From a virus, in IMG/VR virus record IMGVR_UViG_3300049432_000050, positions 1-63,668 of that record: 63,668 nucleotides of DNA. One strand, written 5' to 3'. Position numbers and translations under genes: made by a program. The notes below the pieces were generated by a model, which saw only the letters and a program-made list of their open reading frames with translations, was not told where the DNA came from and did no database searches. The first letter of the stretch is position 1. Every line of letters begins with the position of its first letter. Below, one piece after another: positions 53,352 through 59,210 of the stretch.

Positions 53352-54839
53352 TCACGCCGGGATCGGTTCGGAATCCGGCGCATCGTCCGCGACGGCGAAC
53401 GACTCGTTGACCTCCGCTATGAGCTCATCGGGCACCCAGTAGGCGCGAAACCGGCGCGGCGTCATCGCGGTAGACGCGTCTGCCGGCGAAACCCACGGCA
53501 GCCATGAAAGCCACCGCGGCACCGTGTGCGCCTCGAACTCGTCCGCGGCCTCGTCCACCTTGACGTAGCCCACCCCCGGCAGCGACGGCGGGATCTCATC
53601 CGCTCGCGCGCCCGACATGTACGCGGTGCGGCCGAGAATCTTGCGGACCGTGTCCACGTTGTCGATGCGCAGAGCGATCTTTACGGGGATCTCGTCGCGG
53701 TCCCGCACGATCTCCTTCGTGGCGTTCTGGACGGCGCCGACGACGCTGCATCCCGGTGCGCGCCCGACGTTGATGAGTTGCCGCACCGACTCGCCGACCT
53801 TCTTATCCGCGGCGAGGACACCCTGCTCGTCGAAGAAGATGACCGTGAGAGGCCGCTCCGGCGTCGGTGTCAGCTTGCGCTCACCGCGTCCCTTCAGGTA
53901 CGGCAAGTTGTCCTTCATTCGCGTAACGCCCTTCGCGAGCAGCGCCTCGATGTCCTCGTCGGTATCCGCGAACTCAGCGAACAGATTGCGGCCCGGGAAC
54001 AACTCGACGCCGCCCTTCGCGTCCGCGACCCAAATCTCGACGGAGCCCTCCCGGATATACGGGATCAGGTGCAGGATGATGCTCCAGAACACCGAGCCCT
54101 TGCCCGCCCCCGTCTGCCCAACGACGAGGACGTGCGACCCGAGCACTGGGGCCGTAACCTTCCGCCCGCGCTCGTCGACGCCGATCGGGATGCGGCGCAG
54201 ATCCACCTCGCTCGTGGACGCCGGGATGCCGGGGAACGGGACGACGTCAGCGAGCGGGTCGTCCCCGCGGGGAAGCTCGAGCGTGACGTAGTCCGTCTGC
54301 GGGATGTCCGTCACGCGGCACTCCCGCGCGAGGAACGCTTTTGCGAGGTTCTGCGCGGTCTGCCCGTCATGCCCGACGAACTCGCGTGTCGTCTGTCCCG
54401 GCAGCACCTTCACGCGGACCGTGTCACCGGAGCGCGTGCAGGTCACCTTTGCGAGCTTCGGGACCTTGTCGAATCCGTTGTCAACGATCCCGGTGAGGTT
54501 CTGCCCAGCGAGCACGCGCTGCCACCGCCGCTCATACAGTCGCCACCTGCGGAACGCGCTGTACAGCCTGACGCCGATCAGGCCACGGTACGCCGCGAGG
54601 ACGCCCAGGCGGCCTGTTGTGCGCGCGAGGACGCGGCCCGTGATGTTCCATGCGATCAGGGCCAGGGCACCGTAGAACACGACGCCGACCGCGGCATGCA
54701 AGGTCGTCACGACCGCGAGCGCGACGAACGCGGCGAGCAGGCCGGCGCGGACCGGAAACCGGTATGCCGCGACAGCGACGATCGCGACCGTCTGACACAC
54801 AATCACGATGAGGTTCCAGATCAGGACCGCCCAATCCAT
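53352..54839 (-). CDS. FtsK/SpoIIIE (TraB-like) DNA translocase
   Basis: 495 residues. Three N-terminal transmembrane helices (within about 5-70) precede a cytoplasmic linker and the motor. The motor has GQTGAGKGS (Walker A near 240), VADAKGGVEL, LTVIFFDEQ (Walker B near 332) and VVGAVQNATKE. The architecture resembles the transfer proteins of Streptomyces conjugative plasmids and cell-division FtsK, but there is no gamma DNA-recognition domain. It could move DNA across the membrane or act in segregation. It is convergent with the RusA-like gene and 4 nt from the methyltransferase gene. Confidence 0.8.
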   Translation of the reverse strand: MDWAVLIWNLIVIVCQTVAIVAVAAYRFPVRAGLLAAFVALAVVTTLHAAVGVVFYGALALIAWNITGRVLARTTGRLGVLAAYRGLIGVRLYSAFRRWRLYERRWQRVLAGQNLTGIVDNGFDKVPKLAKVTCTRSGDTVRVKVLPGQTTREFVGHDGQTAQNLAKAFLARECRVTDIPQTDYVTLELPRGDDPLADVVPFPGIPASTSEVDLRRIPIGVDERGRKVTAPVLGSHVLVVGQTGAGKGSVFWSIILHLIPYIREGSVEIWVADAKGGVELFPGRNLFAEFADTDEDIEALLAKGVTRMKDNLPYLKGRGERKLTPTPERPLTVIFFDEQGVLAADKKVGESVRQLINVGRAPGCSVVGAVQNATKEIVRDRDEIPVKIALRIDNVDTVRKILGRTAYMSGARADEIPPSLPGVGYVKVDEAADEFEAHTVPRWLSWLPWVSPADASTAMTPRRFRAYWVPDELIAEVNESFAVADDAPDSEPIPA

Positions 54840-56173
54840 CAGGCACCCACGTCGAAGAGGGAGCCCTGACCTGTCGCGGCGACCGCGGCGCGTGCCTGCT
54901 CGGCCTCCAGGCGCTTGACGAGCGTCATGCCGTCCGGGTGCTCAGACCACCACGCAATACGAGCCTCAGCGATCGCGACGTACTCCGGCTCGCGTTCGAT
55001 GCCGACGAAGTCAAAGCCCTCCAGCTCCGTCGCGCAGCCCGTTGTGCCGCTGCCGGCGAACGGGTCGAGCACCGTCCCGCTGGGCGGGGTGACGAGCCGC
55101 ACGAGCCAGCGCATCAGGCTCAAACTCTTAACAGTCGGATGGGTATTGCGCCGTGGCCGTGGGACGTTGGAACGGCCGGGCCGCGGCATCCTTTCGTGCA
55201 ATGTTCCGCTGGGGCGATGGTCGAATGGGTCGCTCTCGCGCTCCTCGAACCCCTCGAGTCCCGCGTTGCGCTCGGCGCTGGAACTCTTCGCGCAGTAGAA
55301 CGCGCGTCGTTCCGTGTCCTCATGCCGGTGGTCGAAGGTGGGGAAGAACCGCGACGCGCCACCCGAATCGCCCGTGCTGATGACCTTACCTATGGGTGGC
55401 GCAGGGATACCGTTGTAGCCCCCTAGACCGTAATCGCGTCGGGCGGTACCGGGATGAGTCGTCAGCGTTCCCGTCTGCTCATCCAATAAACGGACCGGGC
55501 AGTCCTCGACGCACCTGTACGCGGCGACCTCTTCGGTACCGTCAGCATCCGCGTAGCCCGCGCTCATATCGCCGTTGCGCCCAACCCCGGCCTTGAAGTC
55601 CAGCGATACGCCGGGGCTCTCGCTGCCGAACTGCGGGTTAGGCACAGCGGGGCTCGCGGACTTCACGCGTCGTGTCCCTACCGGCTCGCAACGGGGCGAG
55701 TGACTGAGGATCGTGTTCGCGGGCCAACGACCCAGGTTGGCGTTGTGGCCACCCTCGTCTCCGGCCTCACCGGCGTTCCATCCCCATCCATCAGCACGTC
55801 GTCCGCCGCTCACTGACGCCGGCACATCCTTTGACGAGCCCACCCGGCACCCGTCCACGTTCAGTGCCCCGGTCCCGCGCGCGAGGACGTTCGCGCTCAC
55901 GGTCCCGCTCAAGGGTTTGCGGGCGACGACGATCGGCTCATGCGCGGGCTTGAGAGCGGTCCCCCACCCGGCCCAGCGCTCAGCGTCGGGGGTGGCGGGC
56001 GCGGTGACGGGAACCATGCCATTTATGGTTTCCGACCGCGACGTAAAGCCATCCGTGGCACCCGTCGTTCCCTGCCCCGCGTAGGTTGCGCCGCGCGTGC
56101 CATCCGGGAACTGGGGTCGCATTCCGACGACCTCCCGCTCCACTCCCGCCGCCTTGTCGATCGCCTTGCTCAC
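54839..56173 (-). CDS. DNA methyltransferase, C-terminal part (motif I half)
   Basis: 444 residues. KAIDKAAGVEREVVG begins the part of the protein that usually follows GSGFP directly. ALKPAHEPIVVARKPL and, near the end, TVLDPFAGSGTTGCA (motif I) with GFDFVGIEREPEY place it in the beta class (order IV then I) of adenine or N4-cytosine methyltransferases. It lies in the same frame as the N-terminal half at 56192-56620, separated only by a TGA and six codons. No Shine-Dalgarno sequence precedes the GTG at 56173. See finding on the in-frame stop. Confidence 0.75.
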   Translation of the reverse strand: MSKAIDKAAGVEREVVGMRPQFPDGTRGATYAGQGTTGATDGFTSRSETINGMVPVTAPATPDAERWAGWGTALKPAHEPIVVARKPLSGTVSANVLARGTGALNVDGCRVGSSKDVPASVSGGRRADGWGWNAGEAGDEGGHNANLGRWPANTILSHSPRCEPVGTRRVKSASPAVPNPQFGSESPGVSLDFKAGVGRNGDMSAGYADADGTEEVAAYRCVEDCPVRLLDEQTGTLTTHPGTARRDYGLGGYNGIPAPPIGKVISTGDSGGASRFFPTFDHRHEDTERRAFYCAKSSSAERNAGLEGFEERESDPFDHRPSGTLHERMPRPGRSNVPRPRRNTHPTVKSLSLMRWLVRLVTPPSGTVLDPFAGSGTTGCATELEGFDFVGIEREPEYVAIAEARIAWWSEHPDGMTLVKRLEAEQARAAVAATGQGSLFDVGA

Positions 56174-56191
56174 GTCCAGCGACTTAGGCGC

Positions 56192-56620
56192 TCAGGGGAA
56201 GCCGCTCCCGTACAACCAGTCCAGTTCTGGTCCGAGCGACTCCCCATTGGCATCACCTCCCCCGTTCAGGTGGAGGATGCGGTCACGGATCTCGAAACCG
56301 GCGAGGCGGATCGCGATGCACAGCAGGTCATACGTCCTAGTGCCCCCGAAGGCAACGAGGTGCGCCCCGGGTTTCAGGACGCGGTAGACCTCTCGCCAGT
56401 ACGCGGGTCCGGGCACAAAGCTATCCCAGGAACTCCCCATGAATCCATTGCCGCGATGGACGTAGTCGTCTCCGGCGAGCCAGTGCGTCAAGACCTCCGC
56501 GATGTCCGGCTCACGGCTCAGGCCGTAGGGCGGATCAGTCACGCACGCGTCAACACTCGCTTCGGGCATCGCGGCCATCGCCTCGACGCAGTTGCCGTGG
56601 ATGATGCGCGAGCCCATCAC
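56192..56620 (-). CDS. DNA methyltransferase, N-terminal part (motif IV half)
   Basis: 142 residues. VDACVTDPPYGLS is motif IV. MGSSWDSF, REVYRVLKPGAHLVAFGG and DRILHLNGG are the following conserved elements. It ends at WLYGSGFP and TGA. Typical relatives run on as FPKS without a stop. The half-protein lacks the SAM-binding motif and cannot act alone. It overlaps the coiled-coil gene upstream by 4 bp. Confidence 0.8.
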   Translation of the reverse strand: MMGSRIIHGNCVEAMAAMPEASVDACVTDPPYGLSREPDIAEVLTHWLAGDDYVHRGNGFMGSSWDSFVPGPAYWREVYRVLKPGAHLVAFGGTRTYDLLCIAIRLAGFEIRDRILHLNGGGDANGESLGPELDWLYGSGFP

Positions 56621-57021
56621 TCGGCCTCCCTCGCGAGCCGGCGAAGCTCCTTCTCGGCGCGGTCCGCCTTGCGTGCCTGCTCATCGCACTCCCCGGCAAA
56701 CCTGTCCGCCTCCTTCGCGGCGAACCGGGCAGCCGACGCCACGCACCGCCGCAACGCCTGCGCGCACCGGCCGTGCGCCGCGACAACCAACGCGAGCGCG
56801 TGATCCGCGTCCAACACCAGATCAGCGTCCGCGGCATCATCGTCGAACTCGCGCACAGCCAGGTACGCCCTGTCCATGCTCGTCCGGGCACGCTTCAGCG
56901 CCGCGTGCGCCCGCTGCCGAGCCCCAGCGCACCGTCGCTTCAGCGCTACCGCCTGAGCCTGCGCACGCCCCTCGTCACGCTGCAGGAACGCGGCCTGCGC
57001 CTGCTGGCGCGCGTCAGGCAT
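56617..57021 (-). CDS. Coiled-coil protein, 134 aa
   Basis: An Ala/Arg/Glu-rich, almost wholly helical protein with heptads throughout and scattered Cys. The ATG at 57021 is chosen because its A is shared with the stop of the upstream methyltransferase-tail frame (TGATG). No family. Confidence 0.6.
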   Translation of the reverse strand: MPDARQQAQAAFLQRDEGRAQAQAVALKRRCAGARQRAHAALKRARTSMDRAYLAVREFDDDAADADLVLDADHALALVVAAHGRCAQALRRCVASAARFAAKEADRFAGECDEQARKADRAEKELRRLAREAE

Positions 57022-57149
57022 CAGGACCACTCCCCGGACCGCATGAGCTCCCGGACGGCTCGCCCGACGAGCCAAGCAGCGTAGACGTGAACGCCGTCGC
57101 CGAGTGCGGACAGCCGGGATCGGTCCACCCGCGCCCGCACTCGCCGCAC
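57021..57149 (-). pseudogene. Orphan C-terminal tail of a cytosine methyltransferase
   Basis: A 42-codon frame reads VDRSRLSALGDGVHVYAAW and ends GEWS. It is closely similar to the C-terminus of the full methyltransferase at 57688 (VDRSRLSALGDGVCVHVAY, ending GRWE), at roughly 75% DNA identity over the alignable part. It lacks all catalytic motifs. It lies just beyond the HNH gene. It looks like the tail of a resident gene left behind when a methyltransferase-HNH cassette recombined in. Confidence 0.7.
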
Positions 57150-57159
57150 ACGGGCGGGG

Positions 57160-57654
57160 CTACTCGTCGCGGACGATCACGAACTCTGCGCCGATCTTGC
57201 GCTTCGTCAGGAGAGGGTCGCCGTACTTCTTGAAGCGCTGGTGATGCTTCCCACAGAGGGCGAGCCTGCGTGCCGGCTTCCCGCAAACTGAGCACATGGT
57301 GCGCGGCCGCGCTTTCTTGCCGTGGCGCCAGTGCCAGCGCAGATGGCAGGAGCCGCAGAGGGTTGCGATGTTCTCCTCGACGTTGTTCGACGGGTCCTCG
57401 TCGCGGTGATGCGTGTGCAGGCCCTCGATCGCGCCGCACTCCTCGCAAGCTCGTCCGCGTAGCTTCTTCGCTCGGGCGCGGTTCCCAGCGAGACTGACAA
57501 TGTCCTGTCGCATGCCGTCGGCCATGCACCGCTCGTCGCAGTAGATGCGTGCCAGAAAGCGGGTGCGGTCCTCCAGCCGACCGTTGAAGCGCTTGCGGAT
57601 AAGCTGCTCCCCGCATGCGGCGCAGTGCTTGACCGGATCGGGCTTCGCCTTCAT
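57160..57654 (-). CDS. HNH endonuclease between methyltransferase pieces
   Basis: 164 residues. An N-terminal CAACG zinc site and YCDERC precede CEECGAIEGLHTHHRDEDPS, NIATLCGSCHLRWHWRH and a third zinc finger (CSVCG, CGKHH). The HNH core is intact. It lies between the full cytosine methyltransferase and a duplicate of its tail, the position expected for a homing endonuclease that entered the gene. Confidence 0.85.
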   Translation of the reverse strand: MKAKPDPVKHCAACGEQLIRKRFNGRLEDRTRFLARIYCDERCMADGMRQDIVSLAGNRARAKKLRGRACEECGAIEGLHTHHRDEDPSNNVEENIATLCGSCHLRWHWRHGKKARPRTMCSVCGKPARRLALCGKHHQRFKKYGDPLLTKRKIGAEFVIVRDE

Positions 57655-57687
57655 CGGTTCCCATCATACAACGTGTGTTAGTCGGCA

Positions 57688-58866
57688 TCATTCCCACCGT
57701 CCTGCCTGCATGTGCTCTCGGATGGCAAGCCCAACTGTGTACGCCACATGGACGCAAACTCCGTCACCGAGAGCGCTGAGTCTGGATCGGTCCACCCGGG
57801 CGGCACTCCGAGCATCCACTCCACGAACTCGGGAGCTAAGCGGAGCCGGGGCGGATCCGTGGACGCGTCCCCATCGGTGGATGGCGGGGGCGTAGGCGCC
57901 CCAGTCGACAGCGACGCCATGGCTCCGCTCAGCTTTAGGTCGCCCTTGCCATATCGCTGCTGATTCTTCTCCCCATCCGACCGACTCGGAGTCGGCAGGA
58001 GGTTGAGCTTCGTCGCGGTGATCTCCAGGGACTTGCGCTCGAACTCGCTCGGTGCTCCCGTGTCCTTCACCATGTGCCGCGTCGGCGTCGGGAGCATCGC
58101 AAGGGACTTCATCAGCGAGGTGCCGGTGCTGTTCTTGCCGGGGATGTTCGGGCTGCCATCCGCCCGCCCGTCGCGTGCCACTGGCGTTGGCAGCAGCGGT
58201 GTCGACCCGGTCACCATGTTGCGTTCCGCTGCCGGCCGATGCTCGTACACCTCTACGAACCCCGACAGCGAACAACCGGTCCCGGAGATGGGGGGCCCCG
58301 ACCGCGGCGGCGGGGACGCATTCCCAGCGGACATCGAACCCGAGCGTGGCCATGTCCCTGAGAACGACTCCCCACAGGGATCCAGCAGGCTCGCCTGGGG
58401 CAGCAGCCATCCCCCTGATGTCGCCGACGTTCTCAATGAGCACGTAGCGAGGTTCAAGCTCGCCAATGAGTCGCTGCATCTCGCCCCACAGAAAGGTTTC
58501 GGCGTGCTCGAACCCGTTGCGCTTCCCGGCGCTGGAGATGCCACGGCAGGGGAACCCGCCGGCGACGAGGTCGACCGGTGTAGCGATGTCAGCGCGAACT
58601 CCAACTCGTTCCCCGTCGGCCCCGGCTTGCGGGCTTGGCCCTCCTTCGCGAAGCCGTGTGGCGTGGGCAGCAGCTTGACCTCGCAGGGTGCGGATGTCAT
58701 CGAACACCGGCACCCCGGGGAACCTGGTCCCGAGTAGCTCGCGTCGCCATGGGTCGGATTCGCACATCCAAGCGTGCCGGAAGCCGGCGAGGTGCAGCCC
58801 GAGGTCGAGCAATCCCACGCCAGAAAAGAGGGACCCGACCGTGGGACATCCTTCCGGCCCATTCAC
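57688..58866 (-). CDS. dcm: C5-cytosine DNA methyltransferase, reading frame shifted in the middle
   Basis: 392 residues from GTG 58866, which follows GGGAGGGG. Motif I (VGSLFSGVGLLDLGLH), motif IV with the catalytic Cys (GGFPCRGIS), motif VI (YVLIENVGDI) and motif VIII (RDRLF) lie in this frame, as does the C-terminal RLSALGDGV. Between about 58262 and 57785 the familiar target-recognition sequence (LLPTPVARDG, LLPTPSRSDG, EFVEWMLGVPPGW) is instead in the +1 frame. Both frames are open, so a full product with a scrambled middle is possible, or two compensating frameshifts. It methylates cytosine in DNA if functional. Confidence 0.75.
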   Translation of the reverse strand: MNGPEGCPTVGSLFSGVGLLDLGLHLAGFRHAWMCESDPWRRELLGTRFPGVPVFDDIRTLRGQAAAHATRLREGGPSPQAGADGERVGVRADIATPVDLVAGGFPCRGISSAGKRNGFEHAETFLWGEMQRLIGELEPRYVLIENVGDIRGMAAAPGEPAGSLWGVVLRDMATLGFDVRWECVPAAAVGAPHLRDRLFAVGVRRGVRASAGSGTQHGDRVDTAAANASGTRRAGGWQPEHPRQEQHRHLADEVPCDAPDADAAHGEGHGSTERVRAQVPGDHRDEAQPPADSESVGWGEESAAIWQGRPKAERSHGVAVDWGAYAPAIHRWGRVHGSAPAPLSSRVRGVDARSAARVDRSRLSALGDGVCVHVAYTVGLAIREHMQAGRWE

Positions 58867-59210
58867 GACCCCTCCCGTTGCGCAACCAGCCGGAACCGCT
58901 GCCACGAACACCAACGATGCGCAAGGCGCGTCACCCGGTCCCCCGCCGACGAATGATCGTAAGCCGGGACGAACCCAACAGCGTCATCACGCTCGAGCAC
59001 CCGCGGCCACCCATTCGCCCGCGCATACGCCACGTCCGCCGCGGGCACCCGGACCGCGATAACGCCCTTCGATGCGTGGCAGTGGCGGTCCTCGTTCGTG
59101 CGGTCATTCGCCGCGCCGACCACCCACGCCCACACACACACCGCGGCCACAACCGCACCGAGGAACGCGACACGGATAGCCAACGCACCGAACAACGAAC
59201 GCGGCTGCAT
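58863..59210 (-). CDS. Membrane-anchored protein, 115 aa
   Basis: One N-terminal transmembrane helix (VAFLGAVVAAVCVWAWVVGAA) is followed by a soluble domain with two Cys and several His residues. It is coupled to dcm. No family. Confidence 0.6.
   Translation of the reverse strand: MQPRSLFGALAIRVAFLGAVVAAVCVWAWVVGAANDRTNEDRHCHASKGVIAVRVPAADVAYARANGWPRVLERDDAVGFVPAYDHSSAGDRVTRLAHRWCSWQRFRLVAQREGS

What the first reader, a model, noticed from the sequence alone, without database searches (positions are those of the whole stretch)
56165..56205. In-frame stop splits a DNA methyltransferase exactly at a conserved site, with matching proline codons around it
The two halves are in the same frame. 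The junction reads ...GSGFP, TGA, GCG, CCT, AAG..., i.e. FP-stop-A-P-KSLDV. Relatives, as I remember them, read FPKS without interruption. Removing the stop and two codons, by slippage from the CCC before the stop to the CCT six bases after it, restores FPKSLDV exactly. Matched take-off and landing codons flanking a stop are the hallmark of translational bypassing in T4 gene 60. Stop read-through, a two-subunit enzyme, or a decayed gene are alternatives.
Basis: partly seen in the sequence, partly recalled or inferred. Interest (0 to 1): 0.7.

Follow-up and report, generated by a model that had tools for sequence, protein, structure and literature searches.

The report
Phage methyltransferase cut by nine-base insertion
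A bacteriophage DNA-methylating enzyme gene carries a nine-base insertion with a stop codon at a site that its relatives keep intact; the most likely reading is a recently inactivated copy, and nothing beyond one 1-in-9 codon coincidence suggests that ribosomes jump over it.

Summary
On the minus strand (56206..56165) a beta-type N6/N4 DNA methyltransferase reads GSGF-P-TGA-A-P-KSLDV in one frame. In 161 of 161 alignable relatives P is followed directly by KS, so the window carries a unique 9-nt in-frame insertion (TGAGCGCCT). Everything else is intact: only 2 of 70 conserved columns downstream of the stop are violated, typical of uninterrupted relatives. About 20 genes shared with a syntenic sister phage show no other in-frame stop, TGA is this phage's commonest stop, and no tRNA gene is present. 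The proline match expected of bypassing arises by chance in 11% of 9-mers that begin with a stop. There is no sign of a T4 gene 60 apparatus, apart from a 12-bp hairpin ending at the stop (1.7% of genome windows fold as well). Best explanation: a recent nonsense insertion in an accessory orphan methylase. The gene is mobile between phages, and this segment is a known invasion target: within 7 codons lie an intein site, an out-of-frame HNH insertion, and an independent +4-nt split in an unrelated phage. Two-polypeptide expression, read-through and artefact remain possible; stop-hopping is not excluded (about 6%).

The parts
56192..56620 (-). N-half of N6/N4 methyltransferase (motif IV DPPY), ends GSGFP-TGA
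   Evidence: PF01555 positions 1-79; phrog_67
56186..56194 (-). 9-nt insertion TGAGCGCCT relative to all relatives (equivalently CCCTGAGCG, 56189-56197)
   Evidence: 161/161 relatives lack it; protein alignment A1
54839..56191 (-). C-half in the same frame (KSLDVSKAID..., motif I DPFAGSGTTG); first start codon after the stop is GTG at 56173
   Evidence: PF01555 positions 159-220; 2 of 70 conserved columns violated
56195..56245 (-). 12-bp RNA hairpin whose 3' arm ends at the CCC codon just before TGA
   Evidence: z -3.54, region chosen after the fact; 1.7% of 52-nt windows of the genome fold as well; z +0.55 for the 131-nt region
56219..56272 (-). 18-codon stretch HLNGGGDANGESLGPELD that most relatives lack; supplies the 5' arm of the hairpin
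   Evidence: alignment A1; other, unrelated inserts at this place in L128, L143 and L179
56120..56136 (-). possible internal start ATG (56122) behind an SD-like GGGAGG that is part of the conserved EREV codons
   Evidence: sequence; M at this position in 3 of about 61 relatives

Best explanation
The feature is an accessory (orphan) beta-type N6/N4 DNA methyltransferase gene of a tailed phage, interrupted recently by a 9-nt in-frame insertion with a TGA stop between the invariant P and KS of the GSGFPKS loop. Shown: the insertion, its uniqueness, the intact downstream half and the location in a short segment that homing elements target in this family. Inferred: ribosomes terminate at TGA and make a 142-residue fragment without motif I, so this copy gives little or no methylation. 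How the 9 nt arose (small templated insertion, or a scar left by repair of a homing-endonuclease cut) is open.
For: The insertion is absent from all 161 alignable relatives, including the closest (L002, in a syntenic sister phage). TGA is the commonest stop in this genome (19 of 30 confident genes), and there is no tRNA gene, so nothing suppresses TGA generally. About 20 genes shared with the sister show no in-frame stop, so the contig is not error-ridden. The gene is dispensable and mobile: the sister carries its copy elsewhere and has none between FtsK and the next gene. Broken copies occur elsewhere: L142 in the same segment, L192 and probably L247, Jebeks and KanikaMF1 C-terminal splits. 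No bypass or read-through signal was found.
Against: The C-half shows no decay at all (2 of 70 conserved columns changed, median of relatives 1), and dN/dS against L002 is below 1 on both sides of the stop. The insertion must therefore be recent, or the C-half must still be used. The insertion keeps the frame, and an exact Pro-to-Pro restoration is available.
Confidence: 0.6

Rival explanations
1. Two-polypeptide enzyme: the N-half ends at TGA, the C-half is made by re-initiation (GTG at 56173, 18 nt after the stop, or ATG at 56122 with an SD-like GGGAGG), and the halves assemble.
For: The site lies in a low-confidence loop between two folded elements (AlphaFold2 pLDDT under 50 for residues 119-147). 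In unrelated phage L142 the same segment is split and a C-ORF starts with an ATG that overlaps the N-ORF end. Fragment complementation is known for a C5 methyltransferase (title and abstract of PMC3404938). The C-half is intact.
Against: GTG 56173 has no Shine-Dalgarno and is just the conserved Val codon. Either start would drop the invariant KS (and KSLD or more) from both chains. The SD before ATG 56122 is a by-product of the conserved EREV codons. No conserved split lineage was found.
Confidence: 0.12
2. Stop-hop or translational bypassing: peptidyl-tRNA-Pro leaves CCC, skips TGAGCG, re-pairs at CCT and resumes at AAG, giving an exact GSGFPKSLDV protein.
For: Exact restoration. Stop directly after the take-off codon as in T4 gene 60. 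A hairpin just upstream. Synthetic stop-hops over matched codons exist (PMC5009743).
Against: A Pro match is expected in 11% of 9-mers starting with a stop. The hairpin is ordinary for this GC-rich genome (1.7% of windows; regional z +0.55). CCC and CCT are not identical codons. No take-off stem-loop (30 nt from the stop, z +0.30), no SD-like GAG at 6 nt, no conservation. PMC5009743 says no natural in-frame stop-hop is known.
Confidence: 0.06
3. TGA read-through: a fraction of ribosomes insert an amino acid at TGA and make a fusion with three extra residues (X-A-P).
For: Frame kept; the loop has low predicted confidence and might accept three residues; a C-terminal Pro before a stop slows termination (own knowledge).
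Against: No suppressor tRNA, TGA is the main stop here, and no relative tolerates any extra residue at P^KS.
Confidence: 0.08
4. Sequence or assembly artefact, or a minor allele chosen by the assembler.
Against: A 9-nt in-frame insertion is not a typical short-read error, and about 20 other conserved genes are uninterrupted.
Confidence: 0.12

Closest known systems
Actinophage orphan DNA methylase family (Dorothy_75/ShiLan_65/Lilac_101; Gosselin et al. 2023, PMC9957025; Arsenault et al. 2025, PMC11855218)
   Same: Same protein family (Lilac and ShiLan fetched here); patchily distributed, mobile, repeatedly invaded; the intein sits at WLYG^SGFPKS, 4 codons upstream of this insertion
   Different: Published invaders are an intein, a LAGLIDADG endonuclease and an out-of-frame HNH element, all large and in-frame-open; here there is only a 9-nt insertion with a stop
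T4 gene 60 translational bypassing (PMC11194080, PMC5009743)
   Same: Stop codon right after the putative take-off codon; synonymous codon at the landing site; hairpin upstream
   Different: 12-nt rather than 50-nt scale, non-identical codons, no take-off stem-loop, no KKYK-type peptide, no SD-like spacing, no conservation
Synthetic stop-hops in E. coli and the proposed Streptomyces phage Hau3 terminase bypass (PMC5009743)
   Same: Short hop over a stop between matched codons; Hau3 is an actinobacterial phage
   Different: Stop-hops are synthetic (the review knows no natural case); Hau3 involves a UUA codon
Split phage methyltransferase in L142 (IMGVR_UViG_3300035158_000293)
   Same: Same family, broken 2 codons away, stop codon gained
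   Different: +4 nt with a frame change; the C-ORF has its own overlapping ATG

Membership tests
Beta-type N6/N4 DNA methyltransferase (PF01555) | Motif IV (DPPY) before motif I (FxGxG), profile match above cut-off | tested here: met
   N-half 28.9 bits, C-half 64.5 bits, cut-off 26.7; DPPY in the N-half, DPFAGSGTTG in the C-half
Beta-type N6/N4 DNA methyltransferase (PF01555) | One continuous reading frame through GSGFPKS (as in all relatives of this subfamily) | tested here: not met
   TGA at 56194-56192; all 161 relatives continuous. It is filed as an interrupted copy of the family, not as a working member
[quoted passage not shown]
   CCC/CCT synonymous, not identical; chance 11%
Programmed bypassing (T4 gene 60 type) | Take-off stem-loop at and after the take-off codon | tested here: not met
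   30 nt from the stop: -5.4 kcal/mol, z +0.30
Programmed bypassing (T4 gene 60 type) | 5' stem-loop upstream of take-off | tested here: inconclusive
   12-bp hairpin, 1.7% of genome windows as stable
Programmed bypassing (T4 gene 60 type) | Conservation of stop and gap in relatives | tested here: not met
   None in viral contigs (one pattern hit is not a methyltransferase)
Programmed bypassing (T4 gene 60 type) | Fusion protein made | not testable with these tools
   needs expression
Intein or HNH insertion in methylase | Large inserted element with endonuclease or splicing domains | tested here: not met
   only 9 nt inserted

The most novel reading that the evidence does not exclude
A natural in-frame stop-hop: a 9-nt insertion made innocuous by peptidyl-tRNA-Pro hopping from CCC over UGA-GCG to CCU, assisted by the hairpin that re-forms behind the ribosome.
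Probability: 0.06. Interest if true: 0.85.

Novelty: new member of a known kind. Interest (0 to 1): 0.25.

Why it matters
If the copy is simply dead, it is one more example of fast turnover of orphan methylases in phages, and it adds a lesion to a segment already known as a target of homing elements. If full-length protein were made by hopping, it would be a natural in-frame stop-hop, of which none was known to the 2016 review, and a second phage example of an insertion tolerated at the level of translation. A single dual-reporter experiment separates the two.

Tried and rejected
(1) I first took the neighbouring C5-methyltransferase (57688-58914) for a second, frameshifted gene and hence evidence of general methylase decay. 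Relative L184 has the same two overlapping frames, so that was withdrawn. (2) Search for the same FP-TGA-x-P-KS arrangement in all viral contigs: none. A wider FP-stop pattern gave one hit, whose frames show no methyltransferase. (3) ShiLan-type HNH element as source of the 9 nt: ShiLan inserts near GTALKPS^EP, not at FPKS. (4) Copy of local sequence: the 8-mer CTGAGCGC recurs 212 nt downstream, but also nine more times in the genome; not convincing. (5) Genome-wide TGA reassignment: rejected, TGA is the main stop. (6) genome-contig scan for a close prophage copy: only one distant hit.

Full report
What is there. On the minus strand the gene starting at 56620 encodes motif IV (TDPPYGLS) and runs to GSGFP-TGA at 56192. 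The same frame continues A-P-KSLDVSKAIDKAAG... to a stop at 54839 and contains motif I (DPFAGSGTTG). Both halves match Pfam PF01555, N-half at profile positions 1-79 and C-half at 159-220, and PHROG 67. Sequence relatives with solved structures are CcrM, DpnA, RsrI and MboIIA. The window is a 63,668-base IMG/VR phage record with terminase, portal, capsid and tape-measure genes and no tRNA gene.

Is it unusual? I collected about 250 methylase loci from IMG/VR and cultured phages. In a protein alignment of 161 full-length relatives, every one has P directly followed by KS and no extra residue. A looser scan found 241 copies intact across the segment.

Is the rest decayed? No. Of 116 columns conserved in at least 90% of relatives, the window violates 4 of 46 before the stop and 2 of 70 after it; relatives have medians of 1 and 1. 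Pairwise dN/dS against the closest relative (L002) is about 0.23 before, 0.39 after and 0.15 for the 25 codons straight after the stop (values). The stop is thus recent, or the downstream half is still used.

Contig quality and code. A sister phage (G001, 50,063 bases; FtsK 71% identical) is syntenic with much of the window. The genes it shares credibly show no other in-frame stop; the flagged cases lie in ORFs that conflict with a better coding frame. TGA ends 19 of 30 confident genes. General recoding of TGA or a poor assembly is therefore unlikely.

Context. The sister phage carries its methylase at a different place and lacks the methylase, HNH and C5-methylase genes that the window has between FtsK (53352-54839) and the gene at 58863-59210; only the small gene 56617-57075 is shared in between. 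The family is known as a mobile orphan methylase repeatedly invaded by an intein, a LAGLIDADG endonuclease and an out-of-frame HNH element (PMC9957025, PMC11855218). In sequences fetched here the intein interrupts WLYG^SGFPKS in Lilac and KanikaMF1, an intein-like insertion sits at the same place in the metagenomic contig L187, and ShiLan has it too. Violet has an insertion starting right after GSGFPKS in a gene annotated as carrying an out-of-frame HNH domain. Phage L142, unrelated to the window, has a +4-nt break at GSG^FP with a stop and an overlapping ATG for the C-half. Four different insertions thus fall within seven codons. Breaks elsewhere in the gene also occur (L192, probably L247, the Jebeks group), and I looked hardest at this segment, so the clustering is suggestive only. 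It makes a repair scar after a homing-endonuclease cut conceivable, but the window's insertion lies about 12 nt from the intein point and nothing shows it directly.

Bypassing. T4 gene 60 uses identical GGA codons, a take-off stem-loop in the A site, a 5' stem-loop, a KKYK-containing nascent peptide and a weak SD 6 nt before landing (PMC11194080, PMC5009743). Here take-off CCC and landing CCT are synonymous. Among 9-mers of this genome that begin with a stop, 11.4% end in CCN, and 4.1% of all 9-mers with an in-frame stop allow an exact restoring hop. A 12-bp hairpin ends at the stop (z -3.54 for a region picked after seeing it), but 1.7% of all 52-nt windows in this 68% GC genome are as stable and the 131-nt neighbourhood has z +0.55. 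Its 5' arm lies in an 18-codon stretch most relatives lack, so its conservation cannot be tested. There is no structure at the take-off site (z +0.30). The review states that no natural in-frame stop-hop is known, so a claim needs direct evidence.

Two polypeptides. The AlphaFold2 model (mean pLDDT 61) puts the site in a low-confidence loop (residues 119-147) between a core strand and a helix, where a break is structurally conceivable. However, the first start after the stop (GTG 56173) has no Shine-Dalgarno, and both candidate starts would leave the invariant KS untranslated.

Conclusion. The interpretation as bypassing is possible but unsupported. The best-supported account is a recent in-frame nonsense insertion in an accessory phage methylase, at a segment of the gene that is a known target of homing elements.

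Noticed in passing
57678-58914 (-): Two long overlapping ORFs in different frames: a C5 cytosine methyltransferase (57688-58914) and an 'LLPTP...EFVEWMLGVPPGW' ORF (57678-58862) matching phrog_1008. The same pair of overlapping frames is conserved in L184 (44% identical), so this may be an overprinted gene or a recoding site.
   Followed up: partly
57038-57149 and 57160-57654 (-): A remnant of a second C5-methyltransferase C-terminus (VDRSRLSALGDGVHVYAAWLVGRAVREL) lies just downstream of an HNH gene whose best phage match (39%) lies inside a DNA-cytosine methyltransferase gene of a Staphylococcus phage: a likely homing event.
   Followed up: partly
L142:2375-4259: An unrelated phage has the same methylase split at GSG^FP by +4 nt, with the C-half ORF starting at an ATG that overlaps the end of the N-half ORF: a candidate two-subunit enzyme. 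Its nearest relative (L185, 72% identical in the N-half) is intact across the site.
   Followed up: partly
L187:2070 onward: Intein-like insertion at WLYG^C in a metagenomic virus contig, the same site as the actinophage inteins.
   Followed up: no
54839-56620 versus G001:C1:47317-48807: The sister phage carries its copy of the methylase at a different genome position (equivalent of window about 18.7 kb), so the gene moves between sites in one phage lineage.
   Followed up: partly
L003:1463-3047, L004, L266, L273: Fishburnevirus and Cheoctovirus copies (Jebeks, KanikaMF1, ShiLan, RitaG) are split before motif I, with the last part in a separate small ORF annotated as a methyltransferase; a shared split lineage.
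   Followed up: no
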